Shown here in pieces: positions 1-22,759 of a stretch of 64,000 nucleotides of DNA. Position numbers and translations under genes: made by a program. The stretch lies in the NCBI RefSeq assembly GCF_000001735.4, contig NC_003075.7, positions 16,617,001-16,681,000 on the forward strand. The letters are read 5' to 3'. Under the pieces are notes generated by a model, which did not search any database, was not told the DNA's origin, and saw nothing but the letters and a program-made list of their open reading frames with translations. Source of the DNA: Arabidopsis thaliana (Eukaryota > Streptophyta > Magnoliopsida > Brassicales > Brassicaceae). Numbering within the stretch: position 1 is the stretch's first letter; each line of letters opens with the position of its first letter.

Positions 1-67
1 AAACGATTTCGATTTTTTCTTGTTTGGTAGCTGAACAAATGTGATCATTGAACTGAAAAAAACACAG

Positions 68-424
68 GAAAAAGTGAAAGAATGGGGACAAGAGGTGTTC
101 CTTACAGCAGAAGCCACTAGTGGAATGGGTGAGAAAGAGAAAACAGCGTTGCAGAAAATGAAAGAACTATCGAGGAATGGAATCGAAAAGCTAATTGAAG
201 AGAACAAGTTAGATGCAATAGTGACACTTGGTTCAGATTTGAGCTCTGTCCTAGCCATTGGAGGGTATCCAGGAATCAATGTCCCTGCAGGATACGATAG
301 TGGAGGAGTTCCATATGGGATTAGCTTTGGAGGACTGAGATTCTCAGAGCCAAAGCTCATTGAGATTGCTTTTGCCTTTGAACAAGCAACTCTTATTAGA
401 AAGCCACCCAAGTTCATAGCTTGA
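68..424 (+). CDS. Amidase family protein, C-terminal exon only
   Basis: This is the last exon of an amidase-signature enzyme; the rest lies upstream of the window. These enzymes hydrolyse amide bonds with a Ser-Ser-Lys triad, which is not in this piece. The visible 118 residues are a typical amidase C-terminus, including GGYPGINVPAGYD and GVPYGISFGG, the conserved strand-loop near the substrate pocket, and end in PPKFIA before TGA. I place the exon start at 68, after the acceptor aacacag. An in-frame TGA at 32-34 rules out the more pyrimidine-rich acceptor at 30, and the GTG at 41 is not a real start. Position fits Arabidopsis At4g34880. A decayed duplicate of this 3' end lies at 1471-1550. 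Confidence 0.85.
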   Translation, partial: EKVKEWGQEVFLTAEATSGMGEKEKTALQKMKELSRNGIEKLIEENKLDAIVTLGSDLSSVLAIGGYPGINVPAGYDSGGVPYGISFGGLRFSEPKLIEIAFAFEQATLIRKPPKFIA

Positions 425-428
425 GTCC

Positions 429-444
429 CCATTGGAGGGTATCC
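429..444 (+). repeat. 16-bp repeat of amidase exon sequence just after the stop
   Basis: The 16 bases ccattggagggtatcc at 255-270, inside the amidase exon, recur exactly here, five bases after the stop codon. Together with the fragment at 1471-1550 this looks like a remnant of a tandem duplicate of the amidase 3' end. The repeat is short, so chance or a micro-duplication remain possible. Confidence 0.45.
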
Positions 445-602
445 TCTGCTTTCAAAAGTTTTGTATCATGAAATGGTTCTAGTCACTCGAATAATTTACC
501 TTGAGATTTGACTGTTGTAACTTTTCCCTATCGTTTTTACCTTTTTAATGATTACATTATAACTACATTTAATATTAATATATAATACGTTAAAAGCAAA
601 CC

Positions 603-1463
603 AACTTATTCTTAGAAAAATGGATCGGAGTGAAAAAAAGTCTCGCTCTCTTCTCTCTCTAACATTCTTCAGAGAGGGAGACTTTATCCTTATTCTGCCG
701 TTCGGACGTGGTCCGATATCGCCGTTAGTTTAGCCGTGACACGGCTTTCCGTTGCCGCGTTCTTTGTCGTCCGGTTTCATGCCGGCTTATGTACCAAATC
801 TCCGCGATGGTCAGCTCTCGTCTAGCACCGCTTAGCTTCTTCAGCAACGGTGGCTAGCTCTTGCCCGGCACGACCGGCTATTCTAGCGGTCATGGCCGGT
901 TTATGTTCTTCTTTAATTTCTGAATTTTGTTTTAGTTTTGCTAATAATCTCATCGGATTTATGTTGGGGGTAATAATCTGTCATATCCTCGATGGTTCTT
1001 TTCCCTCTCTATCCTTTGAGTTTTCAAGATGGGTTTCGCCGGATCGTTTTTTGAACTTAGGATTTACATAATGGTTTCAAAGAAATTTTTCTCTTTTGTT
1101 GAAGGATTGAAGATTCTTCCGTCGTTTATCACGATTCCTTAAGCCGTTATCTTTAATTTGGAGCTTTGATGTTTTCATTCTGGTGCAAAACACAAGAATC
1201 ATCTCACCGGAATCAGCTCAACGGCGAAGGTTGTTGCCGGAAAACTTTTGATTATTCATCCAGCGTGTGACGTGGTATATCCCGGTTGTCGACATGTGTT
1301 CATGGATGGAGTTCCGATAGAATTTCTTCTGCAGAAGGTTATCTAATGGGCCTTTTTTGGGCTTTATGTAATTCCAAAGTTGGAGCTTTTGTTTAAGCTC
1401 TTGTATGATATGATGATGTTTAATAAAACTTATGAGACAAAAAAAAAAAACTTATTCTTAGAA
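603..1463 (+). mobile_element. Non-autonomous poly(A) retroposon with target-site duplication (Sadhu-like)
   Basis: The 15-bp sequence aacttattcttagaa occurs at 603-617 and again at 1449-1463. Between the copies is an insert of about 831 bp. It starts near a CT-rich stretch (about 645-662), is GC-richer than its surroundings, and ends in ttaataaaac, ttatgagac and an A tract of about 12 (1439-1450). A target-site duplication plus a 3' poly(A) tail is the signature of LINE-mediated retroposition. There is no reverse transcriptase or long ORF; the 73-codon frame at 850-1071 looks like chance. Size, tail and lack of coding capacity match the Arabidopsis Sadhu family, but a retroposed transcript or a LINE fragment is also possible. 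The family assignment is an inference. Confidence 0.72.
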
Positions 1464-1470
1464 TATTTTC

Positions 1471-1550
1471 TGGGAATAGCTTTGGAGGATTGAGATACTC
1501 TGCATCAAAGCTCTTTGAAATTGCTTTTGCCTAAGTTCAGAGCTTGAGGC
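1471..1550 (+). pseudogene. Relic of an amidase 3' end
   Basis: This stretch aligns with the amidase exon from about 316 to 425. It shares agctttggagga, tgagat-ctc, caaagctc, attgcttttgcct and then agttca-agcttgag. An internal deletion of about 35 bp removes the codons between the AFAF and KFIA regions. The frame is broken, so it cannot encode protein. It has the same orientation as the intact gene and sits just beyond the retroposon, near the XDH1 3' end. It most likely represents a tandem duplicate of the amidase that has almost fully decayed. Confidence 0.7.
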
Positions 1551-1735
1551 ACTTGTAGTCTATAAAGTTGTTGCTTGTGAGAAACATATCTTTATAAATA
1601 TATATAGTGTATACTGCTTGGTAAATGTATCTTTACAGATATGTTACATTTATATGGAGACTGAAAATAAGTTACAGATATGACTTTCTCACAATAGATT
1701 GATCGATCTGTTTCCCCTCTGATGATGTTCAAAGC

Positions 1736-4700
1736 TCAAACACTAAGATTAGGGTAGAAATCTGAATTTACAAAAGGAGCTGAAAATTCGTCGAAACAAG
1801 CCATCCTGATACGCTCTGGAGTGGCTGGACTCTCTAGAGGGAACCAGTCTGTGAGACCCACCTCGGTTCTAGCCGCTTTAATAGCTTCCTTTATCGCAAA
1901 GAAAACCGATGATGCAAGAAAGAATGGTGGCTCACCCACTGCTTTAGATGAATGTATTGCCTTTGTATTCGGATTCCCCTGATTTAATACAGTATAACCT
2001 CAGGTTCAGTTTCAAATGTGTTGCTACTACCAATTTAAAGCTTGGTCTCATAGTTACAAACCTTGAGAAGCGAAACATTGAGGTTGAACGGCATGTCGTT
2101 GATGGAAGGTATTTTGTAGTTTCCGGGTCCGCAAGTGAGTAAACTTCCTGGTTTAATCCATTTATGAGCTGCATCTCCCCATTTGAGTTCTTCTAAAGCT
2201 ACCCAACCCAGTCCTTGTACAAACGCTCCTTCTATCTGTAAATAGTCATTTCAGATACAACACTATTCTTCTAAAAGATAAGAAAGTATAGGAGGGTAAG
2301 GGAAGAACACGCACTTGTCCAACATCAATGGCTGGGTTAAGAGAATATCCGAGGTCCAACATTATATCAGCTGCTCTTGTGTGGAAATCACCAGTCAATG
2401 TATCTATCTCAACTTCCGCAAAGGCAGCTCCATATGTGTAATATCTAAAGGCGTTCCCTTTTCCAGATATCCAGTCAAACCCAAGATCAGGAACTATGTG
2501 AAAACCATGAGCTGATAGGTCTATCCGTTGAAAGTAGCAGGCACTTACTAGCTACATATACTCAGAGAGAAGGACATTTTTTTCATCAAAATAGGCATCT
2601 AACTCTTCTGAGTTTATATCACGTTGCAAGATAAAAAAAATACCTCAGTAAATGTGTTGAAATTGTGCTTAGATGCAACAGGTTCCATTCTTGCTATAAT
2701 CTGCTCACAAGCGTCTAAAACTGCAGCACCATACATATCAGAGCTCGCAGAAGCAGCAGTTGGTGACGCATTAGGAACCTATCAAGAGACCATCAAAACG
2801 ATAAGAGAGGAAAAACATTTTTGTCTGATTATGTCTCGGCCCAAAGTGTGCAGCTTTGTAATTGACTTAGATGTACCTTGTCAGTGCTTGTCTCTGACAC
2901 GAAAACTGAGCTAAGTGGAATGTTAAAGGCGGATGCAGCAACTTGAGCGACCTTTGTATGCAATCCTTGACCCATCTCCACACCACCATGAGTCACTAAA
3001 ACAGTCCCGTCAGTGTAAACATGAACAAGAGCTCCGGCCTGTAACATCCCCATAATGTGGAGGGAAAAATAAAAGATAAGTATTTTAAAATTTAGATTCT
3101 AGCTTTGCAAGCAATGGTAGTGCATTGGCGAAATTTCCATGGCAGATTTTCTCTTATTGTTCCAGTTTCTCGACAGATAACTAACTTGAAAGAAAAAGGA
3201 TCCATGTCAACCAAAGATAACCTGATTCATGAACTTTGTGGTAAATGATATGCCAAATTTTGTGGGAACCATAGCTACACCACGCTTTTTCCACCGATTA
3301 TGACTATTAAATTCGTCAGCTTCTCTGCGGGCCTTTAAGAAGTTGCACGATACTTTCAGCTCTTTCCAGAGCTGATGCAATGTGCAGTGCTGAAGAGTCT
3401 GACAGTAATGGGTGACTGATCCTTCCACTTGAAAGTTCATCTCCTAAAGTAAAGTATATACACCAGAAAATATTAAGATAAGAAACTGATAAAAGGAGGA
3501 CAACTTCCTATAAACTTTCAGGAGATGGAGATGTTTAGAAAATATTCAACTCACTTTGATTTCTTCAGGGCTTTTATTAAGCTCAGCTGCGATTCTTTGA
3601 ATCCAGTTTTCAGTTATAAGCATACCTTGGGGGCCTCCAAACCCTCGGAAAGCAGTGTTGCTAGGAAAATTAGTAAAGCAAACATTCCCAACAATCCTTA
3701 CATGCGGGATCTCATAAACGTTATCCGAGTGAAACATGGCACGTTCAAGAACAGAAAGGGAGAGATCCAAAGAGTTGCCACCATTGTTGTAAATTTCAAG
3801 GTCCAACGCCAATATTTTTCCTTCGTTCGTAAATCCAACCTTTAAGATAGCAGAACACAATAAAAAAAGGAATTGTTTAGTTTGTCTAACAATCTATTCC
3901 CACTGTTTCTTCTACTGACAACCGTTTCTTTCCATTTCATTGCTCACTGCCTAAAAATTCCGGGGAAATAACTGGAAATACCTTGTACTTTCCAAGAAAA
4001 CTATGACGATGACCAGTTATCATCATGTCCACATCTCGGTCCAGTATGAGTTTCACAGGTCGATTCAATAGGTAGGAAGGAACAGAAGCTGCCGCAGCAA
4101 TGAAAGCTGATCTTGTTTCTTTACCACCAAAGCCACCACCAATTCGTTTGGTTTTGCATACCACTTTAGACATCGGAAGACCAAGAACATGCGACACATA
4201 TTTCTGGTGCTTTTGAGGAGCCTGCATATAAATCACAACCACCAACATTTGCTTAAGCAGAGACAACATTATCATATAATATCTTAAACTAGCTGATGCC
4301 TAATAGTTTTCTTGTACAGAGACTTAATGGTCATGTACTGGTCCGACAAACCAAGAATAAAAATGAATTCCACTCAGTAAAGTATATGGCAGTACACTAA
4401 TAATATGCTTACCTGTGTGGATGAAATCATATGAACTTCGCTGCCCCCATCTACTGTCCAAACCAAACTACCATTAGGCTCCAAGTAGAAGTGTTCCTGA
4501 CCACCCATTTGAACCTCTCCCTCTATTACCCTGTCACACTGACCAGATTGAAAACACAGCTCGACATCCCCTTTTCTTAGCCTTTTCTCTGTGTTCGGAT
4601 GGAAACTTTTAGCATTAATAGCCTCCTTGATTGATAATATTGCTGGTAGTTCCTCATACCTAACGTCAACTTTTCCTGCTGCAGTTTTTGCATTTTCATG

Positions 4701-7700
4701 TGTATCCGCGACGACCACACCAATGACCTGAAATACCAAAGTCAATTTAATGAAATAATTGAGACGTAAGATATACATATATACTAGATCATATGAGAAC
4801 TTTCATTTACTTTTTTAAGATATAAACAGTACTATTAGAAAACTTTGCTCGTTTACTTTCTGGTGATCAGAAGCATGCACCAAAAACAGATTTGCTTATA
4901 AAAAGCATGTAAAATTTCTTCTGAGACACAAGGAAGTTCTAGGCTCCATTGAAAAGCTAAGAAAAAACGTGAAAATTTAGGTTTCAAATTTCCTTACTTG
5001 TCCCACACACGTGACCACATCTGTAGCAAATAATTCTTCGTCGGGAACAATTGGTCCAATCATATTATCCCCAGGAATATCTTTGGCAAGAAACAGACCA
5101 ACAAAACCAGATGAAGATTTGGCTGCCGAATCATCGATTGAAAGGATGCGGGCATGTGGCACTTTGCTTAGCACAAAGGCAGCATGTAAGGTATTAGGAG
5201 GTACTGGAGTATCATCAGTATATTCCGCTTCCCCTGTGACCTACATAAAAATAATAAGTGTGTTGAGATAAAATGGTACGCTCTTCTCTACTCAACAACT
5301 TATAGAGAATTACACCAAAAAGAGACTTTGATGGGATAGAGGTTCTTAACTATCAACGACAAAACCATCCCAAAGCCAACAATATCCAGACACCAAACTT
5401 ATCATTTTTACCAAGCTTAAACATATTTTAGAGTTAAGCTTATGGAGTTGATAATGGTGAAGTTTGGAGTTGAGAAAATATGAATACCAAGGAATAAAAA
5501 AGATACAATTAAACAGTAGACCTATGTTATATCCTGAAGTGGCTAAGAAAACAACCAGAATGAGAATCAAAGTGGAGAACCAATTTGGGTAAATGGACCA
5601 ACATACCTGCATTCTCGCTGAAAGATGCACCTCCGACGAGCCAACAGATGTTCCCTGCTTTACTGTCTCATAGTCTTGTTTTCCAATTCTAGATAACCGA
5701 GGAACAGGTTGCACAGCTGACATATGGGAGGGTGGGAAGGTCTCTATCGCAGAATTTGCATTATTGACATTATGAGAAACCCATAAGAAAAATTTAAAGA
5801 AGAAGCTTAGGGTTAGAGATTTCCGAAACTCCACCATTCCCCCAGGAGCATCTTCCTTAATCACGACATCGCTCTGTATGACCTTAAGCGCATCCTGCAG
5901 AAGATCTTTATTCCAATTCTTTCCAATTAGAAACTCTTCAGTCTTTCTCGCACACAAAGAAAGAGGAGCCACACCTCCATAAGCAATGGATGCATCAGAA
6001 ACGAACAATTGTTGACCCTTGTCTTCAAGAAACACACGCATTCCACCATTGACAATAGCTATATCATCATCCCTGCGATGGGCCTGCTTAAATTCTTTCA
6101 CATACTCTAAGGGTCTTGTCCATGGAAGGAATACCGACAACAAGATCTCGTTGCTCCCCATATCCACTTTACGATAACCGAGGAAGAAATCTTTTGCAGG
6201 TATAGACCTAACATCTCCATTGCAGTTGGTTATCCGAAACTCTGCTCTTGAAGCCATCCAAAGAGGATTTAAATCAGATATTGGACTAGCTGTACAGATG
6301 TTTCCACCAATGCAAGCAACATTTCTTATTTGTGTCCCAGCAAACCACTTCAGCTGTTCGATAAAAGCCTTGCATGCTGATGTTTCATGTGCAGGACGCT
6401 CCTTTACTATCTTCCTGAATAACCTCAGGAGTTCAGAAAGTCTCAAAGCTGAACCAACCTCTATCCCATTGTCATTGACATTCAATGCGTTGAGTTCTGG
6501 GACTTGAGCAACAGAGATCAGCACCTGATACTGTAACCTCTTCAATCTCATTTCGATTCCCACCTCTGTATTACCTACCAGTAGTTTTGCATCAGGATAA
6601 TTTGCTTTGAGCTCAAGCAAGTTCTGAAGACATACGGGTCTATACCAGGTAATCCCCCCATTTCCCCTTAACTTTAAGGGAGTTAACTTCCTCAGCAAAA
6701 GTTCAGGGGGGAAAATAAGCTCCTTATCTGTATACTTAGCTCCATCTATATCACTATAAGAGATTGACTGAAATCTATCTTCATTACAACTGGCAACTTC
6801 ATTTGTTGTTTTTGATCCACAAGAGCAAGGTTTGCCAGTAGATGGGCAAATAGTAGAACCATCTTGAAGGCTAAGTGAAGATACACCACAGTAGAGAGCA
6901 TCATCAGATTTTGCAAAAACCCGAAACGCATCAACAATGGGTCGATAACCAGTACAACGACATAGATTTCCTGCAAGACATTCTTCAATCTCCTCCTCAG
7001 AAGGTGAGTTTTTACTTGACCTCAACAACGAATACATGGACATGATAAACCCGGGAGTACAAAACCCACATTGGGAACCATGGGAAGATGCCAAAGACTC
7101 CTGAGAGAATCAAGATCATAACAGTGACAAAAGAATCTCCGCAAAATAAGAAGAAATAGAACCTGAGAGAAGTAAATCTTACCTGGACAGGGTGCAAGCC
7201 AAGTTTGCGATGCCCAAGTCCCTCAATGGATATTACATGCATCCCTTCTACAGAATAGAGAGGTGCTAGGCAAGCGTTGACAGCATAATGCCTGCAATAA
7301 AAGTTTCCGTATGAACAGAGAAAGAATCAATAAGAAGGCGCAAATATAAACTAAACAAAGCCAACATATAGGAGGGACAGATACGCACACAGAGGTCTTT
7401 GACTTCCTGTCATAACTAGACACCATCACCGTGCAAGCCCCACAACCACCTTCGCCGCATCCCAGCTTTGTACCGGTCAATCCTAAATCTACAAGAAACA
7501 TCTGTAAGTTAGAAACTACTTCATGATCGTTTAGAAAAAAAGATTGATCTCTGCAAGTCATTTTTTGTCCCCAAGCGAATCTAGCAATTGGAGCATAATC
7601 TTACTCAAATAAAGACAGTGGTCTAAAAAAACAAAAGAACAGTGGATCAAACATAATCTCGATTTTTTTAGAATCCAGAATCTATAAGTCAAACATAAGC

Positions 7701-7983
7701 CTTTTTCTTTAACATACTAGAGTAAGAAACTAGGAATCCAAAAAACAGAATCTTCATAGAGAGTATCAGTTCAAAATTGAATTGAAAATTAAACTTGTTT
7801 GAGTACTTGAAATCATCCCCAGCAATTGGATATTAATCAAAGAAGTTGATACGCACCTCTGAGATATTCGAGAAGTGTCATATGAGCCAATCCATCAGGC
7901 AAGACTCTACGAACGCCGTTAACGTACAGTAACGCCTCCGTAAACTCATCTCCGATCTCGCCGTCCTTTTTCAGTGAACCCAT
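1736..7983 (-). CDS. XDH1: Xanthine dehydrogenase 1
   Basis: XDH oxidises hypoxanthine to xanthine and urate in purine catabolism, using two [2Fe-2S] clusters, FAD/NAD+ and molybdenum cofactor; it acts in the cytosol. Coding exons: 7857-7983, 7389-7488, 7183-7291, 5607-7100, 4998-5240, 4413-4727, 3982-4221, 3555-3839, 3222-3443, 2877-3038, 2644-2778, 2315-2551, 2062-2235 and 1736-1978, giving 1361 residues. The first cluster uses C53, C58, C61 and C83 ([10 protein letters not shown]). The second uses C123, C126, C159 and C161 ([14 protein letters not shown]). The FAD domain includes LLVGNTEVG and [13 protein letters not shown]. The Mo domain starts near residue 611 and carries E831 (GGKETR), R909 (LERAMF) and E1297 (AVGEPPFF), the equivalents of bovine E802, R880 and E1261. 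No catalytic residue is missing. The tandem paralog XDH2 lies directly upstream. Confidence 0.97.
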
Positions 7984-8310
7984 TTCTCAAATTGAGAGAA
8001 AACTCGATTGGGATCGAAACAAAAACGAAGATGGCGAAGTTGATTACGCCAAGTCAAGAGAAGCAAAAAAGGAATAACATTTTCCTTTTTTAATAATAAA
8101 ATTCGTGTTCCTTTCCGATAGCATCCACCGAATGAATACGCATCTTCATCATCATCACTTGTGCAGTCAATTTTTTTTTTTTTTTTTTTTTTTTTGTAAA
8201 GAACCCAAAATAGAAAGAACGAAATTTAAGTTTGAACAAAGTAAAACAATTGAAGCCTATATGATGTTTTTACAATGCCACTTATATATTTGTTTAACTG
8301 AATTTTGCTG
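7984..8310. other. XDH1 5' flank and promoter region
   Basis: This is the proximal upstream region of XDH1 (transcribed leftward). It holds a tract of about 27 T at 8169-8195. I see no convincing TATA box, no CCAAT array like that upstream of XDH2, and no similarity to the XDH2 promoter. The two paralogs therefore have different promoters. The helicase relic begins at about 8310. Confidence 0.6.
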
Positions 8311-8541
8311 ATTATGTTTCGTTTATAAATTGTAGTCTGATTAGTTATGACTAGTGTGTTATTGTCTTGTCTTAAGATTTACTTTAAAAGAAATTTTGAT
8401 GATATTGTTTGTTTTATTTTTGGTTTTGATATATGATGATGATAAGCGTCTTGCATTGCTCAGCATAACTGCTTCACATTCTTTGCTCACTTGAAGTTAG
8501 AGGTTGTTCAGAAAAAAAAAATCTGATATTTTATCTCGATG
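8310..8541 (+). pseudogene. Relic of the RH16 DEAD-box helicase (intron 6 / exon 7)
   Basis: Bases 8438-8541 align with RH16 exon 7 at 16136-16228. Shared stretches include actgcttcacattct, ttgaag-tagaggttgttcag and tctgat. Bases 8330-8378 resemble the end of RH16 intron 6 (gtctgatta and tcttgtctta). About 60 bp of unrelated AT-rich sequence separates the two parts. The frame is destroyed by indels. The orientation is + like RH16, and the position, between the XDH1 5' end and the XDH2 3' end, is what tandem duplication of an XDH-RH16 block predicts. It may now form part of the XDH2 3' flank. Confidence 0.82.
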
Positions 8542-8687
8542 GCGCGCGCATTTAGTCAACAAAGTTGCTGCTTTGAAGAAACATGTATCATGTTACATCA
8601 TGTATTTGGAGACTGGAAGTAACTTACATATATGACTTTGACAAAATGGATTGATCCATCTTTCTCCCCTCTATTAAAGTTTAAAGC

Positions 8688-11600
8688 TCAAACACTAAGC
8701 TTTGGGCAGAAATCTGAATTTGCAAAAGGAGCTGAAAACTCGTCGAAACAAGCCATCCTGATACGCTCTGGAGTGGCTGGAGTCTCCAGAGGGAACCAGT
8801 TGGTGAGACCTACCTCGCTTCTAGCCGCTTTGATTGCTTCCTTTATTGCAAAGAAGGCTGATGCTGCAAGAAAGAACGGTGGCTCACCCACTGCTTTAGA
8901 TGAATGTATTGCCTTTGCATTTGGATTACCCTGAGTATAATCTCATGTTCAGTTTCAAATGTGTTGCTACCAATTTAAACAGCTTGTTCCTATAGTTGCA
9001 TACCTTGAGAAGAGAAACATTCAGTTGGAACGGCATGTCGTTGATGGAAGGTATTTTGTAGCTTCCGGGTCCGCAAGTGAGTAAACTTCCTGGTTTAATC
9101 CATTTATGAGCTGCATCTCCCCACTTGAGTTCTTCTAGAGCTACCCAACCTAGTCCTTGTACAAACGCTCCTTCTATCTGCAAATGGTGAATTTCAGAAA
9201 TAACACTTTTCTCTATGATTTTCTTGGATTTTAAACATTGCAAAAGGCCAACGAACAGCTAAAAGCGTAGGATGTTGAGAGAAGATTGCGCACTTGTCCA
9301 ATATCAATGGTTGGGTTAAGAGAATATCCGAGATCCAACATTATGTCTGCTTTTCTTGTGTGAAAATCACCAGTCAATGTATCTATCTCAACTTCAGCAA
9401 AGGCAGCTCCATATGTGTAATATCTATATGCGTTCCCTTTTCCAGATACCCAATCAAATTCAAGTTCTGGAACAATGTGAAAACCGTGAGCTGATAGGTC
9501 TATACGTTGAAAGTAGCAGGCACTTGCTAGCTACATACACTCAGAGAAAAAGAGAGTTTTGTTCATCAAAATCTTCTGAGTTTATATCAAATTGCTAGAA
9601 GAAAGAAAGAATACCTCAGAGAATGTGTTGAAATTGTGTTTAGATGCAACAGGCTCCATTCTTGCTATAATCTGCTCACAAGCGTCTAAAACTGCAGCAC
9701 CATACATATCAGAACTCGCAGAAGCAGCAGTAGGTGACGCATTAGGAACCTGTTACAAGGCAATCAAAACGACAAGAGAGCAAAAACTGTGAGGCATTTG
9801 GAACCTATTAAGAGACCACAGAAATGATAAGAGAGAACAACAACAGTTTTGTCTGACTACGTCTTGGCCAAAAGTCCACTGCTTGTAACCGAGTTAAATG
9901 TACCTTGTCGGTGCTTGTTTCTGACACAAAAACCGAACTAAGGAGAATGTTAAAGGCCGTTGCAGCAACTTGAGCAACCTTTGTATGCAACCCTTGGCCC
10001 ATCTCAACACCTCCATGTGTCACCAAAACAGTCCCATCGGTGTAAACGTGAACAAGAGCACCGGCCTGTGACAGCCGTTTAATTATATATTGGATTAAGT
10101 ATCTCAAAATTCAGATTCTAGCTTTGAACGGTAGTGCAATGGTGAGATTTCCAAGGAAGCTTTAGCTTAATCTTTTCAGTTCCTCGACAGATAACTAAAT
10201 TTGAAAGAAAAGGATTCACATCAAACAAAGATAACCTGATTCATGAACTTTGTGGTAAAGGATATGCCAAATTTTGTGGGAACCATAGCTACACCACGCT
10301 TTTTCCACCGATTATGACTATTAAACTCGTCCGCTTCTCTACGAGTCTTTAGGAAGTTGCTGGATACTTTCAGTTCTTTCCAGAGTTGGTGCAATGTGCA
10401 GTGCTGAAGTGACTGAAAGTAATGTGTGATCGATCCTTCCACTTGAAAGTTCATCTCCTAAAGTAAATATCACCAGGAAACATTAAACTAAACTTACAAA
10501 AGGAGGACAGATTCCTACAAACTTTCAGGAGATGAGTATCTTTAGAAAATATTCAACTCACTTTGATTTCTTCAGGGATTTTATCCAGCTCAGCTGCAAT
10601 TCTCTGAATCCAATTTTCAGTTATAAGCATACCTTGGGGCCCTCCAAACCCTCGGAAAGCGGTGTTGCTGGGAAAATTAGTAAAGCAAACGTTCCCAACG
10701 ATCCTCACATGTGGGATCTCATAAACGTTATCCGAGTGAAACATGGCACGTTCAAGATTAGAAAGAGAGAGATCCATAGAGTTTCCACCATTGTTGTAGA
10801 TTTCAAGGTCCAACGCCAATATTTTCCCTTCGTTCGTAAATCCAACCTGTAAGATAGCAGAGCACATTTAAAAGGAATGATTAGTTTGTCTAACAATCTA
10901 TTCCCACTCTTTCTTCTACTTTCAACTGTTTTCAGTCATTTTTTGATTGGCCGCTCATTAATGGCCACTGCCTAAAAATTCAAGGGAAAAAGCTGGAAAC
11001 AACAGAGAAAGATACCTTGTACTTTCCAACGAAACTATGGCGATGACCAGTAATCATCATGTCCACATCTCTGTCCAGTATGAGTTTCACGGGTCGATTC
11101 AATAGGTAGGAAGGAACAGAAGCTGCTGCAGCAATGAAAGCTGATCTTGTTTCCTTACCACCAAAGCCACCACCAAGTCGTTTGGTTTTGCATACCACTT
11201 TAGACATTGGAAGACCAAGAACATGAGACACATATTTCTGGTGCTGTTGAGGAGCCTGTATATAAATCATAACTACCAATATTGGCATACGCAGAGACAA
11301 CATTATCATTTAATATCTTAAACTGGCTGATGCCTAATGGTTTTTTGTACGTTATTCTAAATGATGTAAATACTAAATAATATGCTCACTTGTGTGGATG
11401 AAATCATATGAACTTCGTTGCCTCCATCTATAGTCCAAACCAAACTACCATTAGGCTCCAAGTAAAAGTGTTCCTGACCACCCATTTGAACCTCTCCCTC
11501 TATTATTCTGTCACACTGACCAGATTGAAAGCACAGCTCGACATCCCCTTTTCTAAGCCTTCTCTCTGTGTTCGGATGGAAACTTTTAGCATTAATCGCC

Positions 11601-14306
11601 TCCTTGATTGATAATATTGCTGGCAGTTCCTGATACCTAACGTCAACTTTTCTTGCTGCAGTTTTTGCATTTTCATGTGTATCCGCGACAAGCACACCAA
11701 TGACCTGAAATACAAGATTAGCTTAGAAATAAGGGAACGAAAGCAGTACATGAAAACTTTTTAAACTTATTTGACGTAACAAAATCAATACATGCTCCTT
11801 TACTTTTCTGGTATCACTTCTTCTAAGATACAGATAAACTAAAAGTTCCCCATTGAGGTTTATTTTCTTACTTGTCCCACACACGTGACCACGTCTGTAG
11901 CAAATAATTCTTCGTCGGCAACAATTGGTCCAATCATATTATTCCCGGGAACATCTTTGGCAAGAAACAGACCAACAAAACCAGATGAAGATTTGGCTGC
12001 CGAATCATCAACTGAAAGGATGCGGGCATGTGGAACTTTACTTAGCACTAAAGCAGCATGCAAGGTACAAGGCGGCAATGGGGTATCATCAGTATATTCT
12101 GCTTCCCCTGTGACCTAGATGAATATACAAGAGTGTTGAGATACACTCTATGGACCTTCGGCGAGCCAACAGATGGACCAAAATACCTGCATTCTTGCCG
12201 AAAGATGGACCTCTGGCAAGCCAACAGATGTACCCTGTTTTACTGTCTCATAGTCTTGTTTTCCAATTCTAGAGAACCGAGGAACAAGTTGCACAGCTGA
12301 CATATGCGAGGGTGGAAAGGTCTCTATAGTGGGATTTACATTATTTACATGATGAGTAACCCATAAGAAAAATTTAAAGAAGAAGCTTAGGGTTAGAGAT
12401 TTGCGAAACTCCACCATTCCCCCAGGAGCACCTTCCTTAATCAAGACATCACTCTGTATGACCTTAAGTGCGTCTTGCAGAAGACATTTATTCCAATTCT
12501 TACCAATTAGAAGTTCCTCAGTGTTTCTTGCACGCAACGAAAGAGGAGCCACACCACCATAAACAATAGATGCATCAGAAACAAACAATTGTTGCCCTTT
12601 CTCTTCAAGAAACACACGCATTCCACCATTGACAATAGCTATATCATCATCCCTGCGATGGGCCTGCTTAAATTCTTTCACATACTCTAAAGGCCTTGTC
12701 CATGGAAGGAATACCGACAACAAGATCTCGTTGCTTCCCATATCCACTTTACGATAGCCAAGGAAGAAATCTTTTGCAGGTATAGATCTAACATCTCCAT
12801 TGCAGTTGATTATCCGAAACTCTGCTCTTGAAGCCATCCAAAGAGGATTTAAATCAGATATTGGACTAGCTGTACAGATGTTTCCACCAATGCAAGCAAC
12901 ATTTCTTATTTGTGTCCCAGCAAACCACTTCAGCTGTTCGATAAAAGCCTTGCATGCTGATGTTTCATGTGCAGGACGCTCCTTTACTACCTTCCTGAAT
13001 AACCTCAGGAGTTCAGAAAGTCTCAAAGCTGAACCAACCTCTATCCCATTGTCATTGACATTCAATGCGTTGAGTTCTGGGACTTGAGCAGCAGAGATTA
13101 GCACCGGATACTGTAACCTCTTTAGTCTCATTTCGATTCCCACCTCCGTGTTACCAACCAGTAGTTTTGCATCAGGAAAATTTGCTTTGAGTTCAAGCAA
13201 GTTCTGAAGACTTACGGGTCTATACCAGGTAATCCCCTCATTTCCCCCTAACTTTAAGGGAGCTAACTTCCTCAGCAGAAGTTCAGGGGGAAAAATAAGC
13301 TCCTTATCTGTATACTTAGCTCCATCTATATCACTATAAGAGATTGACTGAAATCTATCTTCATTACAAGTAGCTGCTTCACTTGTTGTTTTTGATCCAC
13401 AAGAACAAGGTTTGCCAGTAGATGGACAAATATTTGAACCGTCCTGAAGGCTAAGTGAAGATAAACCACTGTATAGAGCATCATCAGATTTTGCAAAAAC
13501 CCGAAACGCATCAATGATGGGTCTATAACCAGTACAACGACACAAATTTCCTGCAAGGCATTCTTCAATCTCCTCCTCAGAAGGTGAGTTTTTACTTGAC
13601 CTCAACAAGGCATACATCGACATGACAAAACCGGGAGTACAAAACCCACATTGAGAACCATGCGAAGATGCCAATGACTCCTGAGAGAAATAGGGAGAAT
13701 TAGGATCGCAGAAATGAGAAAAAAAAAATCTGGAAGAAGTAAAACCCCACCTGAAGAGGGTGCAAGCCAAGTTTCCGATGACCAACTCCTTCAATGGATA
13801 TTACATGCATCCCTTCTACAGAGTAGAGAGGTGCTAGGCAAGCGTTGACAGCATAATGCCTGCAATAAAAGTTTCCGGTATGAACAGTATAAGAAGGCCT
13901 AAACTTAAGCAAAGCAGATGCAACCTATGAGAGAAAAAGATACGCACACACATGTCTTTGACTCTCGGTCATAACTAGACACCATCACGGTGCAAGACCC
14001 ACAACCACCTTCGCCGCATCCGAGCTTTGTCCCGGTCAATCCTAAATCTAAAGGAAACAAAAAACGTTTTCAAGAATCCCACCACACAACAACCTAACCC
14101 TCTAAATTTTGCTGCATTGTACAATTTGTGGCTTCTCTACTCTATCTAAACTTAGATTAGATATAAGCATTTGAAGAAATCAATAATATAGAGTTAAAAG
14201 CACCTCTGAGATATTCGAGAAGCGTCATGTGAGCTAATCCATCAGGCAAAACTCTACGAACACCATTAACGTACATTATTGCCTCCATGAACTCGTTCTG
14301 CTCCAT
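8688..14306 (-). CDS. XDH2: Xanthine dehydrogenase 2
   Basis: This is the tandem paralog of XDH1 with the same reaction and cofactors. Coding exons: 14204-14306, 13948-14047, 13751-13859, 12187-13680, 11872-12114, 11390-11704, 11016-11255, 10562-10846, 10236-10457, 9904-10065, 9615-9749, 9294-9530, 9004-9177 and 8688-8930, giving 1353 residues. All 14 exons except the first match XDH1 exon lengths exactly. The cluster cysteines ([24 protein letters not shown]), FAD motifs and Mo-site residues E823, R901 and E1289 are kept, so it looks functional. The protein starts at [15 protein letters not shown], 8 residues shorter than XDH1. The codon aligned with the XDH1 start is CTG (14319-14321). Intron 4 is 72 bp against 366 bp in XDH1. 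A 281-bp part of exon 4 is nearly identical to XDH1. Confidence 0.97.
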
Positions 14307-14332
14307 CTTCACTGAACCCAGACGAATAACTG

Positions 14333-14386
14333 TTATCCAATAATGGCAAATATCCAATAATGGCAAAAATCCAATAATTGCAAAAT
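14333..14386. repeat. Three tandem 18-bp CCAAT-containing repeats
   Basis: Units run 14333-14350, 14351-14368 and 14369-14386, each close to tatccaataatggcaaa. The third has ttg for tgg. Each carries a CCAAT core, the motif bound by NF-Y factors. They lie 27-80 bp upstream of the XDH2 start codon, so they may sit in its 5' UTR or core promoter. Confidence 0.75.
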
Positions 14387-14441
14387 CTTCTCTTTTTAAA
14401 ATGTTTTTTTTTTGTTTTCATTTTTCGACAAAAAATAGAAA

Positions 14442-14490
14442 AGCCCAATTATTAAGCCCATAAAGAAGAATGTAGCCCAAAATAAGCCCA
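14442..14490. promoter_or_regulatory. Cluster of four AGCCCA (site II-like) elements
   Basis: AGCCCA (TGGGCT on the other strand) occurs at 14442-14447, 14455-14460, 14474-14479 and 14485-14490. TGGGCY elements are known binding sites for TCP-type factors and are common in promoters of ribosome-biogenesis genes. That fits RH16, which starts 170 bp downstream. Function is inferred. Confidence 0.6.
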
Positions 14491-14660
14491 ATATTGGAGT
14501 CATCAATCAGGTCTGGGACATTGAAAAAACTCAGTAACAGTCTAACAGAGGAAACGCGGCGGAGGAGGTTTTACGACTATTTTCCCTTCACTTCTTCATC
14601 TTCTTCCTGCGCCGCTTTTCAAACCTATTCGACCAGACAAACTCGGAAATTTCATATTCC

Positions 14661-17600
14661 ATGGGTAAGACGAAGTTAAAACCTGTGGAGGATGTGAACT
14701 CGGAAGTGGTGGACGAAGTTGAGAAAGCAGAGGAAGTTGAGGAACAGAGAAACGACAGAGAACAAGAAGAAGAGCAAAAAGAAGAAGAGGCACCTAAAAG
14801 TTTCGAAGAGCTAGGGCTTGATTCTCGTCTAATTCGTGCCCTAACTAAAAAGGGTATAGAGAAACCAACCCTTATTCAGCAATCAGCCATTCCTTACATT
14901 CTGGTAATGATAATAGAAAGTCTCTACCTTTTTTTTGAGTTTCGTGGCTACTTATATAATCTTGGGACTGATGATTTATTGTCTCTGTTGTTCTTATATA
15001 GGAAGGAAAAGATGTGGTTGCTAGGGCAAAGACTGGTTCAGGTAAGACTTTGGCTTACCTTTTGCCATTGCTCCAGAAGCTATTTTCAGCAGATTCTGTG
15101 AGCAAGAAGAAGCTTGCTCCTTCTGCATTTATTCTTGTTCCATCTCGAGAACTATGTCAGCAGGTTTGTTTTGGACCATTGTTTCATATCTCTCCTACTT
15201 TCATTTATTTCAGTAATTGATGGGAAATCTTGTTTGATTTGGAAAAATACAGGTTTACACAGAGGTTTCATCGCTTATTGAGCTGTGTAGAGTTCAGCTA
15301 AAAGCAGTGCAGTTGACTAGTAGCATGTCTGCATCTGATATGGTTAGTATTGCATTTCTCATCATGAAAGCATTCCATTGTTTTTTTCTAATTTTGTTTT
15401 GATGTTTCATTTGCAGCGTAATGCATTGGCTGGACTGCCTGAGATTCTTGTCTCCACACCTGCTTGTATTCCGAAATGTTTTGCTGCCGGAGTTTTAGAG
15501 CCCACTGCTGTCAGTGAATCACTTTCAATTCTGGTTCTTGATGAGGTATGATATATGTGCTTCAATTATAATAGTGGCTTTGTTAGAGGTTGTTTTAGTA
15601 GTCACTCTTTTAAGTGGAAGTCTCATGATTTGATTTTCTTGGAAGAACATGTAGTTTAAGCATTTCTTAGTGGTTATATCTATCATGTTTTTCCTTTATT
15701 CCTCCTCTCTTTGAGAGTTGATGTTGATAATATTTTTGTTATCAGGCAGATCTTTTGTTGTCATATGGATATGAAGATAATCTAAGGTCGGTAACATCAA
15801 TAATCCCAAGGCGTTGCCAATGCCTTCTTATGTCGGCTACCACAAGGTTAGACATATATCGATAATAATGATTCTGTTTAGACTCATATTTTTCTCCGAA
15901 GTTTGTCTTGCATGGTTAACTGAATAATATTTTTGCAAATTTTTAGCTCTGATGTCGAAAAATTGAAGAAATTGATTCTGCACAACCCAATCGTTTTGAC
16001 CTTGACAGAAGATAATGACAAGGAAGAGGCCGTCCCAAGTAATGTTCAGCAGTTTTGGGTATGATTCGGTCGCTTAGATATTTTTATAAGTTCACATTTC
16101 TGGGTCTGATTAATGATTATAAGTGTATTATCTTGTCTTAGATCTCTTGCAGTGCTCAGGATAAACTGCTTCACATTCTTGCTCTCTTGAAGCTAGAGGT
16201 TGTTCAGAAGAAAATTCTGATTTTCATCAATACAATTGACATGGGATTCAGGTTGAAATTATTCTTGGAAAAGGTAACTTGTGGGCACCTATACGAGCAT
16301 TCCGATTCTAAAAACTGTACCTGTAATAATAATATTGAATTAGTCTTTTGTTTTGTTTCTTCCAGTTTGGAATCAAGTCTGCAATTTTAAACGGGGAATT
16401 GCCTCAGAATTCTCGACTTCATATCCTTGAGGTACATCACCAAGTCATGCACCTAGATTTAGTTTTTCCGGAAGCAGCTGCGTTTCATAATTAATCAGTG
16501 TATATTTTTTTGTATACAGCAATTCAATGCAGGACTTTTCGATTACTTGATTGCAACGGATGATAATAGCCAGACTAAAAAACAAAAGGAAGAGGCTAAA
16601 GGTGAGGCTAACAAGGAGAACAAGAAAAATAATAAGCGTAGCAAACCAAAGCTAGATGCTGAGTTCGGTGTAGTTAGGGGAATTGATTTCAAAAAAGTTC
16701 ACACGGTATGCTACTTGACTTTTGCTAAGGGGGTTTTCTTTTCTTTGTTTTTGTACTCTTTGCTGCTTGGGATATTGTAAGAATCCTTCTTTTCTTTGCT
16801 CTATACTCTTAACCTTCCCTTAAACCTTTTTTATGCACAGGTTATAAACTTTGATATGCCTCAAAGTGTTACTGGATATATCCATCGAATTGGGCGTACA
16901 GGGAGAGCATATAGCAGCGGATCTTCCGTTTCTCTTGTGAGTTTCTCGTCTAATAATACTGTTGTTTGGCATGATCTCTTTAAATTTTGCAAGTCTAATG
17001 CTCTGCTTTATTTGGCACAGATTTCTCCTGATGAGATGGAAGGGTTTGAAGATATAAAGTCCTTCTTAGCAAGCGACAAGAACAAGGATATTGATATTAT
17101 CACACCCTTTCCTTTGTTGACCGAAAATGCTGTCGAGTCTCTTAGATATAGAGCTGAGGTGAGTAATCTCTGTAGTAAGATGATTACTTCTTTCATTAAG
17201 TGAACAGTATTAAAAGTTGCAATTTGTTTGCAGGATGTGGCAAAGAGTGTTACAAAGATTGCGGTTCGAGAGTCTCGAGCTCAGGATTTGAGGAATGAGA
17301 TAATCAACTCTGAAAAGTAAGCAAGAACATAACTACGTGTGTGATGTGAATTCTCTTATTTTTTTCATCTTCTTAATTTCTCTACTTCTTTCTTCAGGTT
17401 AAAAGCTCATTTTGAAGCTAATCCAAGAGACTTAGATCTGTTGAGACATGACAAGCCTCTGAGTAAGACTGCACCTGCACCACATCTAAAGGACATCCCC
17501 GAGTATCTAGTGGACGCAAAGACTCAAGAAGCAAGCAAGATGGTAAAGCTAGCTAGAGCCGCAATGGGCAACACTAGGAGATCTGGTGGAGGCGGTGGTC

Positions 17601-17834
17601 GCAACAACAAAAACAAGAAACGGTCTAGAAAAGGCAGCGACCCACTCAAAACCTTCAACCCTAATGTAAAACACAACTGAATTTCTCCATTTCTTCTCTG
17701 TTTTGTGTGTATATTTGTGCTAATTTTTTCTATGTTGTTTGCTTACTTCAATCAACCAGGGGTCTAAGAGAGGAGCCGTTGGCCAGAAGGATGGCAAAGA
17801 TTCTAGCTCGACCAAAAAACAGAAGACAGTTTAA
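14661..17834 (+). CDS. RH16: DEAD-box ATP-dependent RNA helicase 16 (DDX56/Dbp9 type)
   Basis: This is an RNA helicase of the Dbp9/DDX56 family, which acts in nucleolar 60S ribosome assembly in other eukaryotes. Coding exons: 14661-14903, 15002-15163, 15253-15342, 15417-15545, 15746-15846, 15947-16058, 16142-16273, 16366-16431, 16520-16705, 16841-16936, 17021-17158, 17234-17316, 17398-17665 and 17760-17834, giving 626 residues. Visible motifs: an acidic N-terminus (about residues 9-43), Q motif ([11 protein letters not shown]), Walker A AKTGSGKT (90-97), PSREL, DEAD (207-210, split by an intron), SAT (238-240), RGIDF and HRIGRTGRA (422-430). A lysine-rich insert lies between IATDD and RGIDF, as is usual in this subfamily. 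The C-terminus is basic with a Gly-rich patch and ends in KKQKTV. Confidence 0.95.
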
Positions 17835-18744
17835 GTTATTTCGTTTAGCGTAAGTGTAACCAAATTTTGACTCGTTATAGTCAATCACACAAAAGAACGG
17901 AGACGAGAGCATCAATCTTTGTAGCTCTATTCATGTAGCATCAGGAGACAAAGTTTTGTGAGCATATTATTAGCCTTTTGAGGTTTTTATTGAAATAGAT
18001 TTTTGTAAGCTTATGAAGACGATATCTGCAGGGTTCAAAATACTCAAATCCACATGGTTTTGGACCCATTTAGATATTTTCGAAATGAATTGGCACATTA
18101 TATGCTTGCACGTTTTTTGTTCCGAGTATTTATGCCACATGTGTCATCTAACTGATTGTGTATAATCAATTAAGTATACCAAATTGGATAAAATTTACCG
18201 ATTGAAAATTAGTTGTTTTACTTGTACATCGTGGTCTATATATATCATTTTCCAACATAAATTATACACTTGAGAATAACACTTTCTGTTGAGTTGATTT
18301 CTTATATTAATGCCAAAGCTAAGACTAAATAAATTCTACAAAATATTTTTAAAAATTTTAACTTTTGAAAAGCTAACTTCAAATACTAAAATATATACTA
18401 TTTGAAATTGATTAATATTATATAGACCAAGTTGGATTTTGATATAAACCACATCGCATATTCGTTTTATTAACAATTCATGTTTATCATGACCTAATTA
18501 GTTCTCTTAAATAGTTGTTGGCAACTTTTAATTAGATAGCCAATCAATTTGAATAAAGAGGTCAAACTCCAACCAATCCCACAACAAATAATTGTCTTTG
18601 ATTTAACGTTTTACACTTAAAAGACAAACACTGCACGATATCTCTCTCAGATTTATAAGTGAACCCTACAAAGTACAAGTCGTAAACTCAACCACAAGAG
18701 AAACCTTATCTTCTTCTTCTTCTTCATCATCAATCTCTCAAGAC
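17835..18744. other. RH16 3' flank and PLC-like gene promoter
   Basis: These 910 bases are AT-rich and non-coding. The RH16 3' UTR lies at the left. At the right, atttataag (18651-18659) is a likely TATA box about 90 bp before the next ATG. A CTT-rich leader (about 18709-18724) precedes the start codon. I see no repeat or RNA gene. Confidence 0.55.
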
Positions 18745-19701
18745 ATGCTCTCTTTTTTCTCTAACCAGATCGACCGGCAAAAAGATGTGTCTAATGAGGA
18801 AAAAACCCTAACCAATCTCGAAAAATCTGACGGTTCACAATTCCCTGGCGATGACTACCGTCCGTCCGATCGGAAAAACTGGATGGCTGGTCTTACGTTG
18901 GAGAAACTAACTCTAAACAAGATCGTGTGGCCAGGAACGCATGATTCAGCCACCAACGATATCGGAATACCTCTGATCTCTCGTCCTTTAGCTGAATGCC
19001 AATCGCTCTCTATCTACGAGCAGCTCGTCCTCGGGACACGTGTCCTCGATATCCGTGTGCAAGAGGATCGCCAAATCTGCCACGGGATTCTGACGTCATA
19101 CGAAATTGATGTTGTCATTGATGACGTTATCAGATTCTTGTCGGAGACTCACTCGGAGATTGTAATCCTGGAGATAAGGACTGAGTTTGGACACAAAGAT
19201 CCTCCGGGGTTCGAGACTTACTTGGCAGACAAGTTAGGTCAATTCTTGATACATCAAGATGATAGCTTGTTCAACAAGCCGGTATCAGAGATTTTGCCGA
19301 AAAGGGTTATATGCATCTGGAAACCTAGAGAGTCTCCAAAGCCGAGCCGTGGTGGAATTCTCTGGAACTCAGATTATCTAAAAGATAATTGGATCGATAC
19401 GGATCTTCCATGGACGAAATTTCAGAGCAATTTGAAGCATCTGAGTGAGCAGCAGCCGACATCTTCTAGAAAATTCTTTTACCGGGTTGAGAACACGGTC
19501 ACGCCGCAAGCAGATAATCCGGTTGTGTGGGTTAAACCGGTGACTGATCGGATCCGAAAACACGCCAGACTATTTATTTCTCAGTGTGTTTCCAAGGGAT
19601 GTGGAGATAAGTTGCAGATTTTGTCCACTGATTTCATCGAAGGAGATTTCGTTGATGCCTGTGTCGGCCTTACTCACGCAAGAATCGAAGGAAAGGTTTG
19701 A
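18745..19701 (+). CDS. PLC-like phosphodiesterase, PI-PLC X domain (short paralog)
   Basis: This intronless gene encodes 318 residues of the bacterial-type PI-PLC X-domain superfamily. In that fold, two histidines cleave phosphoinositide or glycerophosphodiester bonds without calcium. Putative catalytic residues are H66 and D67 in WPGTHDSAT, R104 in LDIR and H113 in QICHG. There is no signal peptide, C2 domain or EF hand, so it differs from plant calcium-dependent PI-PLCs. The substrate is unknown. It is the tandem partner of the gene at 20551. Compared with that copy it carries one extra base near 19686, ending the protein at EGKV and losing six to seven C-terminal residues. Position fits At4g34920. 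Confidence 0.9.
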   Translation: MLSFFSNQIDRQKDVSNEEKTLTNLEKSDGSQFPGDDYRPSDRKNWMAGLTLEKLTLNKIVWPGTHDSATNDIGIPLISRPLAECQSLSIYEQLVLGTRVLDIRVQEDRQICHGILTSYEIDVVIDDVIRFLSETHSEIVILEIRTEFGHKDPPGFETYLADKLGQFLIHQDDSLFNKPVSEILPKRVICIWKPRESPKPSRGGILWNSDYLKDNWIDTDLPWTKFQSNLKHLSEQQPTSSRKFFYRVENTVTPQADNPVVWVKPVTDRIRKHARLFISQCVSKGCGDKLQILSTDFIEGDFVDACVGLTHARIEGKV

Positions 19702-20550
19702 TAGAACTCTGGAACGATCGATGGTTGATCTCAAGCATTGGAACCAAGATTATTTGCTTTTGGGTTGCGTGTATCTTAAGTTATGCTATGTATTAAAGTG
19801 TGTAATTTAAGTTTTCTATGATTGTACATTATATCTGTTTTTCGTTATCCGTCCTGTTTGAAGAATCAAACAGAGAGATAAAGAGAAGGCAGGGGAATTT
19901 ATTCAGTTGCTTTATTTTGCTCAGATTCTTGTACCAAGTTACATATCCTAGTGAAATTTCGAAACCCTTTTCGGCAAGATTAGCGTCTCAATATCCAAAA
20001 CGCATCCGCCATCTAATGACCTCTTCAAGAAAGATTACTCATATATATGTTTTGGAGCAGCTTTTCTAAGCTCACTCAAATAGATTTGGATTTTGGACCA
20101 CAAATCATTCACAGACCCTGCCTAAAACCTGACCATCTTTCTCTTTTCGGATTTTTCAACTATAGTCTTATTTTGGAGCGTCGGAATAATTAAATTTTGT
20201 TTATCTTGTTGATTAGTTATTGACTTATTTCAAAGCCTGATTAAATATTTATACAAAAGTAAACTTATAATTAGGAAGAAAAAAAGTTAAAATAAAGAGA
20301 AGGGTGTCTAAGAACATTCTGACAAATATTTTATCGAATATTGGATTATCGTATGAAATAGTTGTAAATAAACACATCGCATGTATATAGCTTGTCAACA
20401 ACTTCATATATAATAATAAAGAACAACAACTTGATATCTTATATATGGTTTAGAAAGGAAAAGTCTTAGTGACGGAGTGGTGGCCAACTTCGTTAAGTTG
20501 AGAATTTAACCAGAAAGAACCTAAAGAAAGTTCTCATCTCTCAAATAAAC
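19702..20550. other. Spacer between the two PLC-like genes
   Basis: These 849 bases are AT-rich. The 3' flank of the first gene runs to about 20050, and the promoter of the second occupies the right half. The tattggaacca-type sequence after both stop codons (agcattggaacca, 19734 and 21729) is shared, so the duplication extends into the 3' UTR. I see no other feature. Confidence 0.5.
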
Positions 20551-21726: not shown

Positions 21727-22759
21727 ACAAGCATTGGAACCAAATATATTTATTTGCTTTTGACTTACGTATACTATAAGTTACATTATTTACAAAGGCG
21801 TGTGTGTGATTTTCGCCGATGAACTTTATGCAAAGTGTGTGTGAACCCTTTTTACTTTTCCTTGTTCATAATATCTTAAATTTGTAATGTTTGAGCTCTA
21901 CCGTTCTCCTTAAGTAAAAAGAATATGTTTTAGTGGATGTCATGACTAAAGAAGTATAAAACCTAATTATGTACCACTTTAACCATTAGGTTGTTAGAAA
22001 TTTCTAAAAATTAAAATTGGAGCACGATGTTTGCTGGATTAATAAAGAGAGACAAGCTGGTGTCCTTGACTGTGTTATGTTGTGCCATAATTTGCTTGCA
22101 TCCAAACGTATCAAGAATCATGAGTTATTAACGAACAAGAAACTCTTCACAATCAGACTCAATGCATTTATGTTATTACCTACCACAAGCCGTGCCAACT
22201 TGGACAAGCCCGAACTTTGACACATATGGACATAATCTCATCTTAGTTAACCTAAGGCTTCAAATAAAACCCACCCTCATGGTTATTACAATTTTCTTCG
22301 TCCTCTTCATTCAAGATTGTGATTTTGTCCTGCATATACAATAATTTCTTGCTTTAACATTAAATATGTCGGGCTAACCATGCATGCACAACATTGCGTA
22401 TTTGTTGATTACAATACTAATTAATCTATACAGGAATTTATCAGTTTAGACTTTAGTCAGCATTGGACCGTTATACATAGTCTCCACCAACATTCGAATA
22501 ATGTTGTTGCTATAATTATACTAAGTATCCGATTCAGTTTCTGTATATAAAACGTCTATTTTTGGAGAGCCTTTCTTCTTCCTTGAAAAATTCGGAGAAA
22601 TTAACGTTTCACCAATATTTCATTTTCCTCTCTGTCTCTCTCTCTCCCCGCCTCGCTCCACCGTCGTCTCCGGCGATCAAAGCCACCATCTTCATTAACT
22701 TTCAATTGGATTACACAAAGAAAATCTGAGTTATAAGAGTTTCTTGATTGTTGTTTCTC
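21727..22759. other. Long PLC-like 3' flank and ARO1 promoter / 5' UTR
   Basis: These 1033 bases are non-coding; short frames at 22017-22344 show no domain. A CT-rich leader at 22621-22655 (ctctgtctctctctctcc) and tgtatataaaac (22541-22552), a plausible TATA box, mark the ARO1 promoter. No RNA gene is seen. Confidence 0.5.

What the first reader, a model, noticed from the sequence alone, without database searches (positions are those of the whole stretch)
8310..8541. Helicase relic shows that an XDH-RH16 block was duplicated in tandem
A decayed copy of RH16 intron 6 / exon 7 sits between XDH1 and XDH2, in the orientation of RH16. This is what a tandem duplication of [XDH - RH16] followed by loss of one helicase copy predicts. 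It gives the polarity of the XDH duplication and explains the gene order.
Basis: seen in the sequence. Interest (0 to 1): 0.7.

Follow-up and report, generated by a model that had tools for sequence, protein, structure and literature searches.

The report
Helicase scrap at gene-duplication seam
Between two side-by-side xanthine dehydrogenase genes of thale cress lies a dead scrap of the neighbouring RNA-helicase gene, which most likely marks the seam of an old duplication of the enzyme gene and part of the helicase; it is an ordinary kind of genomic scar.

Summary
Window 8449-8535 matches RH16 exon 7 (16145-16228; 86%, E 6e-18 in the whole 119.7-Mb Arabidopsis thaliana genome, where the search found no other match of RH16 DNA). 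A weaker stretch, 8335-8378, matches the end of RH16 intron 6. The scrap has the orientation of RH16, four small indels, and 7 substitutions in 83 aligned sites spread evenly over codon positions: it is dead. New here: it ends at 8535, and homology to the flank downstream of XDH1 begins at 8546-8553, so it abuts the left edge of the XDH2 unit. One tandem duplication with its right breakpoint inside RH16 exon 7 predicts this. A full helicase copy is not needed. Against a simple picture: 7984-8334, upstream of XDH1, is not recognisably related to the XDH2-RH16 spacer or RH16 exons 1-6, so a further deletion or replacement is required, and repair filler copied from RH16 remains a rival. XDH1 and XDH2 differ by Ks 0.26. 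Outgroup genomes were not available. The XDH tandem pair is already known; the scar is an ordinary, useful detail.

The parts
8449..8535 (+). decayed copy of RH16 exon 7, first part (matches 16145-16228)
   Evidence: 86% over 88 columns, E 5.9e-18 genome-wide; 76 of 83 aligned bases identical, 4 indels
8335..8378 (+). probable copy of the end of RH16 intron 6 (matches 16104-16143)
   Evidence: 0 of 300 and 1 of 300 shuffles against intron 6, by two scoring schemes; weaker against the whole gene
8379..8448 (.). insertion or unalignable stretch inside the relic; a possible degenerate repeat of 8281-8326 is not significant (7 and 4 of 300 shuffles)
8536..8552 (.). duplication seam: RH16-like DNA ends at 8535, XDH1-downstream-like DNA starts at 8546 (lenient scoring) or 8553 (standard)
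8546..8687 (-). XDH2 3' flank, homologous to the XDH1 3' flank 1549-1735
   Evidence: 0 of 500 shuffles for 8536-8589 (both schemes) and 0 of 100 for 8590-8687; from there the two genes align
7984..8334 (.). XDH1 upstream region with no recognisable counterpart upstream of XDH2 or in RH16 exons 1-6; no other genomic match found for 7984-8320
1736..7983 (-). XDH1 (coding span of my exon model)
   Evidence: exon model; Pfam domains of exon 4
8688..14306 (-). XDH2 (coding span; my model of exons 2-3 is unreliable, the last ten exons match XDH1 one to one)
14661..17834 (+). RH16, intact donor gene (DEAD-box helicase)
   Evidence: exon model; Pfam PF00270 and PF00271
1471..1547 (+). relic of an amidase last exon, next to the left edge of the XDH1 unit (matches 316-377 and 410-424)
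   Evidence: 85% over 62 bases; the amidase at 316-377 is the only other genomic match found; amidase named from solved-structure matches of 68-421, Pfam gave none for that piece

Best explanation
8335-8535 is the truncated right end of the left-hand copy of a tandemly duplicated block. The block ran from just downstream of the XDH stop codon (about 1549) through XDH and the divergent promoter into exon 7 of RH16 (about 16228). Joining the right end of one copy to the left end of the next put RH16 exon 7 directly before the 3' flank of XDH2 (shown: the two homologies meet within 10-17 bases). The helicase copy was dead from the start because its 3' half was never copied (inferred). Its 5' part and the spacer were later removed or replaced by about 350 unrelated bases that now form the XDH1 upstream region (shown: lack of homology; inferred: how). 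The relic itself most likely does nothing.
For: The one genomic match found, on the right strand and in the right order. The relic end at 8535 meets the start of XDH-flank homology at 8546-8553 (0 of 500 shuffles for the flank). Seven substitutions fall 2, 3, 2 over codon positions 1, 2, 3; four indels are present and each of the three frames has a stop, as expected for a dead copy. Relic divergence (7 of 83, 95% CI 3.5-16.6%) does not exclude the age of the XDH pair (Ks 0.257, fourfold 0.205). Dispersed XDH fragments share bases with XDH2 against XDH1 by 30:5, 48:7, 27:4 and 48:7 in introns and 18:5, 16:6, 15:4 and 16:6 in exons (L028, L033, L031, L032), so the XDH1/XDH2 split is older than that dispersal.
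Against: 7984-8334 shows no convincing similarity to the XDH2-RH16 spacer or to RH16 exons 1-6, although a copy of the 340-base spacer with 25% of bases changed would score about 172 against 27 observed; so a second event must be assumed. The relic is, if anything, less diverged than expected for the age of the XDH pair: P of 7 or fewer differences runs from 0.35 down to 0.02 for an assumed RH16 exon rate of 0.1 to 0.5 of neutral, and to 0.012 and 0.001 if that rate were fully neutral. The order of events has not been seen in any outgroup.
Confidence: 0.62

Rival explanations
1. The RH16 scrap is templated filler: when the XDH copies were joined, or at a later break in the spacer, the repair machinery copied about 200 bases from the nearby RH16 gene. 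The duplicated unit then ended near the XDH start codon.
For: Homology between the copies stops at the XDH1 start codon (7982/14320), and nothing convincing of the spacer or RH16 exons 1-6 is recognisable. Filler would explain both the short scrap and the unrelated 350 bases in one step. The slightly low divergence of the relic would fit a later insertion.
Against: It must by luck have the strand of RH16, the right order, and abut the edge of the XDH2 unit within 17 of 704 intergenic bases. No other genomic source was found for 7984-8320.
Confidence: 0.2
2. One reading: XDH and the complete RH16 were duplicated together, and the extra helicase was later lost by deletions from both sides.
For: Compatible with everything seen in this one genome; only outgroups can separate it from a breakpoint inside exon 7.
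Against: Needs an extra deletion that happens to stop at the left edge of the XDH homology; the genome search found no second copy of RH16 sequence beyond 16228.
Confidence: 0.15
3. Chance similarity or a dispersed repeat.
For: None for the core; the intron part alone would be arguable.
Against: E 5.9e-18 in the whole genome, two matches found; 0 of 100 shuffles under each scheme.
Confidence: 0.01

Closest known systems
AtXDH1/AtXDH2 tandem duplication (Hesberg et al. 2004, J Biol Chem 279:13547; only its title seen, in the reference lists of papers; the paper is not held)
   Same: The same two genes; their tandem orientation is in the published title.
   Different: Whether that paper notes the helicase scrap is not known to me; the seam is described here from sequence.
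Partial-gene relics at tandem-duplication breakpoints (general class, recalled)
   Same: Truncated piece of the flanking gene between the copies, in the orientation of that gene, abutting the next unit.
   Different: Here most of the truncated copy is gone and the upstream region of the left gene is unrelated to its counterpart.

Membership tests
Breakpoint relic of a tandem duplication | Scrap derives from the gene flanking the duplicated gene, same strand, same relative order | tested here: met
Breakpoint relic of a tandem duplication | Scrap abuts the first base of homology of the next unit | tested here: met
   8535 against 8546-8553
Breakpoint relic of a tandem duplication | Continuous homology from the left gene through the spacer to the scrap | tested here: not met
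   7984-8334 has no recognisable counterpart; a later deletion or replacement must be assumed. The filing is therefore as the likeliest origin, not as a full match to the class
Breakpoint relic of a tandem duplication | Age of scrap equals age of the gene pair | tested here: inconclusive
   7 differences in 83 sites against about 9-14 expected
Breakpoint relic of a tandem duplication | Seam shared by species that share the duplication, absent from outgroups | not testable with these tools
   states that the genome has no relatives here
Pseudogene fragment | Broken frame and even substitution over codon positions | tested here: met
   four indels, a stop in each frame; 2, 3, 2 differences over positions 1, 2, 3

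The most novel reading that the evidence does not exclude
The duplication and the later loss of the helicase part gave XDH1 a new upstream region of about 350 bases, unrelated to the divergent spacer that XDH2 still shares with RH16. This could be why, as one paper's discussion states (PMC9569572, passages seen), AtXDH2 is expressed constitutively while AtXDH1 responds to stress: the scar would mark a promoter exchange that split the regulation of the pair.
Probability: 0.3. Interest if true: 0.4.

Novelty: new member of a known kind. Interest (0 to 1): 0.2.

Why it matters
It places one end of the duplicated unit nearly to the base, says which gene keeps which neighbour of the ancestral block, and shows that XDH1 and XDH2 have unrelated upstream regions. 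That offers a testable, though modest, reason for their different expression. It does not change what is known about the enzymes.

Tried and rejected
Homology of 7984-8334 (T run 8169-8196 left out) with the XDH2-RH16 spacer, RH16 exons 1-9 and introns 1-6: 32 tests with 200 shuffles each. One nominal match, out of order (7984-8168 against exon 9, 0 of 200), and three weak ones (8197-8334 against introns 1, 6 and 3: 5, 5 and 14 of 200) are about what 32 tests may give by chance, though the intron 6 one may be the fringe of the relic. With the T run kept, 7984-8310 against the spacer gave 3 of 300 (standard) and 1 of 300 (lenient), and against spacer plus RH16 up to 16080 2 of 100 under each scheme; without the T run the spacer tests gave 84 and 58 of 200. 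I read this as the T run, not homology. A long-gap alignment of the whole interval placed 8296-8446 on scattered other parts of RH16; I did not accept it.

An internal repeat in the relic (8281-8326 to 8371-8417): 7 of 300 and 4 of 300 shuffles, not accepted.

One duplication also explaining the amidase relic at 1471-1547: rejected, since it would put an amidase piece between the relic and XDH2, where one search found none; a separate amidase duplication is simpler.

The dispersed XDH-fragment family as an outgroup for the pair: rejected. Its four compared copies share far more bases with XDH2 than with XDH1, so it came from XDH2 after the split.

Outgroups: a 23-base RH16 exon 7 pattern in viral contigs found nothing, as expected for a plant gene; no plant collection was on offer. 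Rfam found nothing in window 1-20000. Literature: searches. Of their listings I opened passages only, of five papers (PMC3916724, PMC8260144, PMC4501782, PMC9569572, PMC6245725); nothing seen mentions the scrap, no search named a helicase relic as such, and Hesberg et al. 2004 is not held. So I do not claim that it is unpublished.

My exon finder gave a poor XDH2 model for exons 2-3, and its XDH1 model (1398 aa) is longer than I recall the protein to be; Ks therefore uses the last ten exons only (751 codons).

Full report
Where it is. The genome tool places the window at contig C4:16617001-16681000 of a 119,662,809-base genome in 7 contigs. Size, position and gene content fit Arabidopsis thaliana chromosome 4 with XDH1 (AT4G34890), XDH2 (AT4G34900; both numbers) and RH16 (AT4G34910, recalled). 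XDH1 (1736-7983) and XDH2 (8688-14306) lie head to tail on the minus strand, 704 bases apart; RH16 (14661-17834) points the other way on the plus strand. The helicase has Pfam DEAD and Helicase_C domains, and exon 4 of each XDH has Fer2_2, FAD_binding_5 and CO_deh_flav_C domains.

Window 8449-8535 matches 16145-16228 at 86% over 88 columns on the same strand. It is the only match found for RH16 in the genome besides itself, and RH16 is the only match found for 8300-8620 besides itself (E 5.9e-18). Shuffled versions of the stretch did not reach the score (0 of 100 under each of two schemes). The matched stretch lies in exon 7 (16142-16273). Before it, 8335-8378 resembles the end of intron 6 (16104-16143), with 0 of 300 and 1 of 300 shuffles as good against that intron, but less clear evidence against the whole gene. 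In the exon part 76 of 83 aligned bases agree; the seven differences fall 2, 3, 2 over codon positions, with four indels and a stop in each frame.

What is new is the seam. Homology between the flanks downstream of XDH1 and XDH2 starts at 1549-1556 on one side and 8546-8553 on the other, depending on scoring (0 of 500 shuffles). The helicase match ends at 8535. The two homologies thus meet within 10-17 bases, in an intergenic stretch of 704. A tandem duplication with one breakpoint just below the XDH stop codon and the other in RH16 exon 7 gives this seam. A whole-helicase duplication followed by deletions can also give it, but needs an extra deletion that stops at that point.

What does not fit simply. 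The first exons of the two XDH genes align up to the start of XDH1 (7982/14320), but the next 350 bases upstream of XDH1 do not align with the 340-base spacer between XDH2 and RH16, nor convincingly with RH16 exons 1-6. In 32 tests the scores were as in shuffles apart from the exceptions told in Tried and rejected. A copy of the spacer with 25% of bases substituted would have scored 172 on average (minimum 151 of 50 simulations); the observed score was 27. The pair is not old enough for such decay: Ks is 0.257 (751 codons of the last ten exons), fourfold divergence 0.205, and 857 of 1039 aligned bases agree in the nine introns between those exons. I infer that the region was deleted and replaced. 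No other genomic match was found for 7984-8320. This leaves room for the rival that the RH16 piece is repair filler.

Age. With Ks/2 for the dead branch and an assumed RH16 exon rate between a tenth and half of neutral, 9 to 14 differences are expected in 83 sites and 7 are seen; P of 7 or fewer runs from 0.35 to 0.02, and lower still if RH16 evolved at the neutral rate. The same age is not excluded, but is not strongly supported either. An independent time marker was found: dispersed genomic fragments of XDH, introns included, on chromosomes 2, 3 and 4. At intron sites where the fragment agrees with one XDH gene against the other, it agrees with XDH2 by 30:5 (L028), 48:7 (L033), 27:4 (L031) and 48:7 (L032); exons give 18:5, 16:6, 15:4 and 16:6 (four copies compared, L030 and L029 not). 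They came from XDH2 after the split, so the XDH duplication is older than that dispersal. One fragment (L028) reaches into the XDH2 3' flank as far as 8562 and does not reach the seam.

Meaning. XDH2 keeps the helicase neighbour and XDH1 the downstream neighbour of the ancestral block; this does not single out an original. Passages of PMC9569572 state that AtXDH2 is constitutive and that AtXDH1 responds to stress; [quoted passage not shown] PMC3916724 (passages) lists AtXDH2 as 'Pseudogene ?', although its last ten exons align without indels to XDH1 and keep an open frame in my model. The unrelated upstream regions offer a possible reason for the difference in expression; this is inference.

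Verdict. A correct observation and a mostly correct interpretation, refined to a breakpoint inside the helicase gene. The tandem XDH pair is known (title of Hesberg et al. 2004); the scar is a small detail of an ordinary kind.

Noticed in passing
639-1450: 812 bases identical (100%) to chromosome 1 at C1:24298760-24299571, ending in a poly-A run and flanked by a 15-base direct repeat (603-617 and 1449-1463), with 21 further bases between the left repeat and the identical block: looks like a very recent retroposed insertion. The chromosome 1 copy has, by eye, its own flanking repeat, and five partial relatives at 71-82% were listed.
   Followed up: partly
1471-1547: Relic of the last exon of an amidase gene, 85% identical to the amidase end at 316-377, with an internal deletion of about 32 bases, lying at the left edge of the XDH1 unit.
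   Followed up: partly
L028, L030, L031, L032, L033 (C3:1.16 Mb, C3:0.45 Mb, C4:15.16 Mb, C4:17.6 Mb, C2:19.68 Mb): Dispersed, internally rearranged genomic fragments of XDH, introns included, main pieces about 85-97% alike; the four compared are XDH2-derived. Looks like gene capture by a mobile element, type not identified. A separate last-exon fragment lies at C4:0.96 Mb (L029).
   Followed up: partly
L033 3000-3640: A non-XDH stretch inside that fragment family has at least 53 matches in the genome; those listed lie on chromosome 2 beyond 16.2 Mb, chromosome 3 below 1.6 Mb, chromosome 4 beyond 15.1 Mb and chromosome 5 at 1.6-2.3 Mb, none on chromosome 1: a repeat that seems confined to a few chromosome-end regions (the tool calls its counts lower bounds).
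   Followed up: no
18800-19783 and 20807-21783: Another tandem pair of sequences, 83.5% alike; the first encodes a PI-PLC-X domain; a 57-base unit repeated 3.1 times lies at 20583-20759.
   Followed up: no
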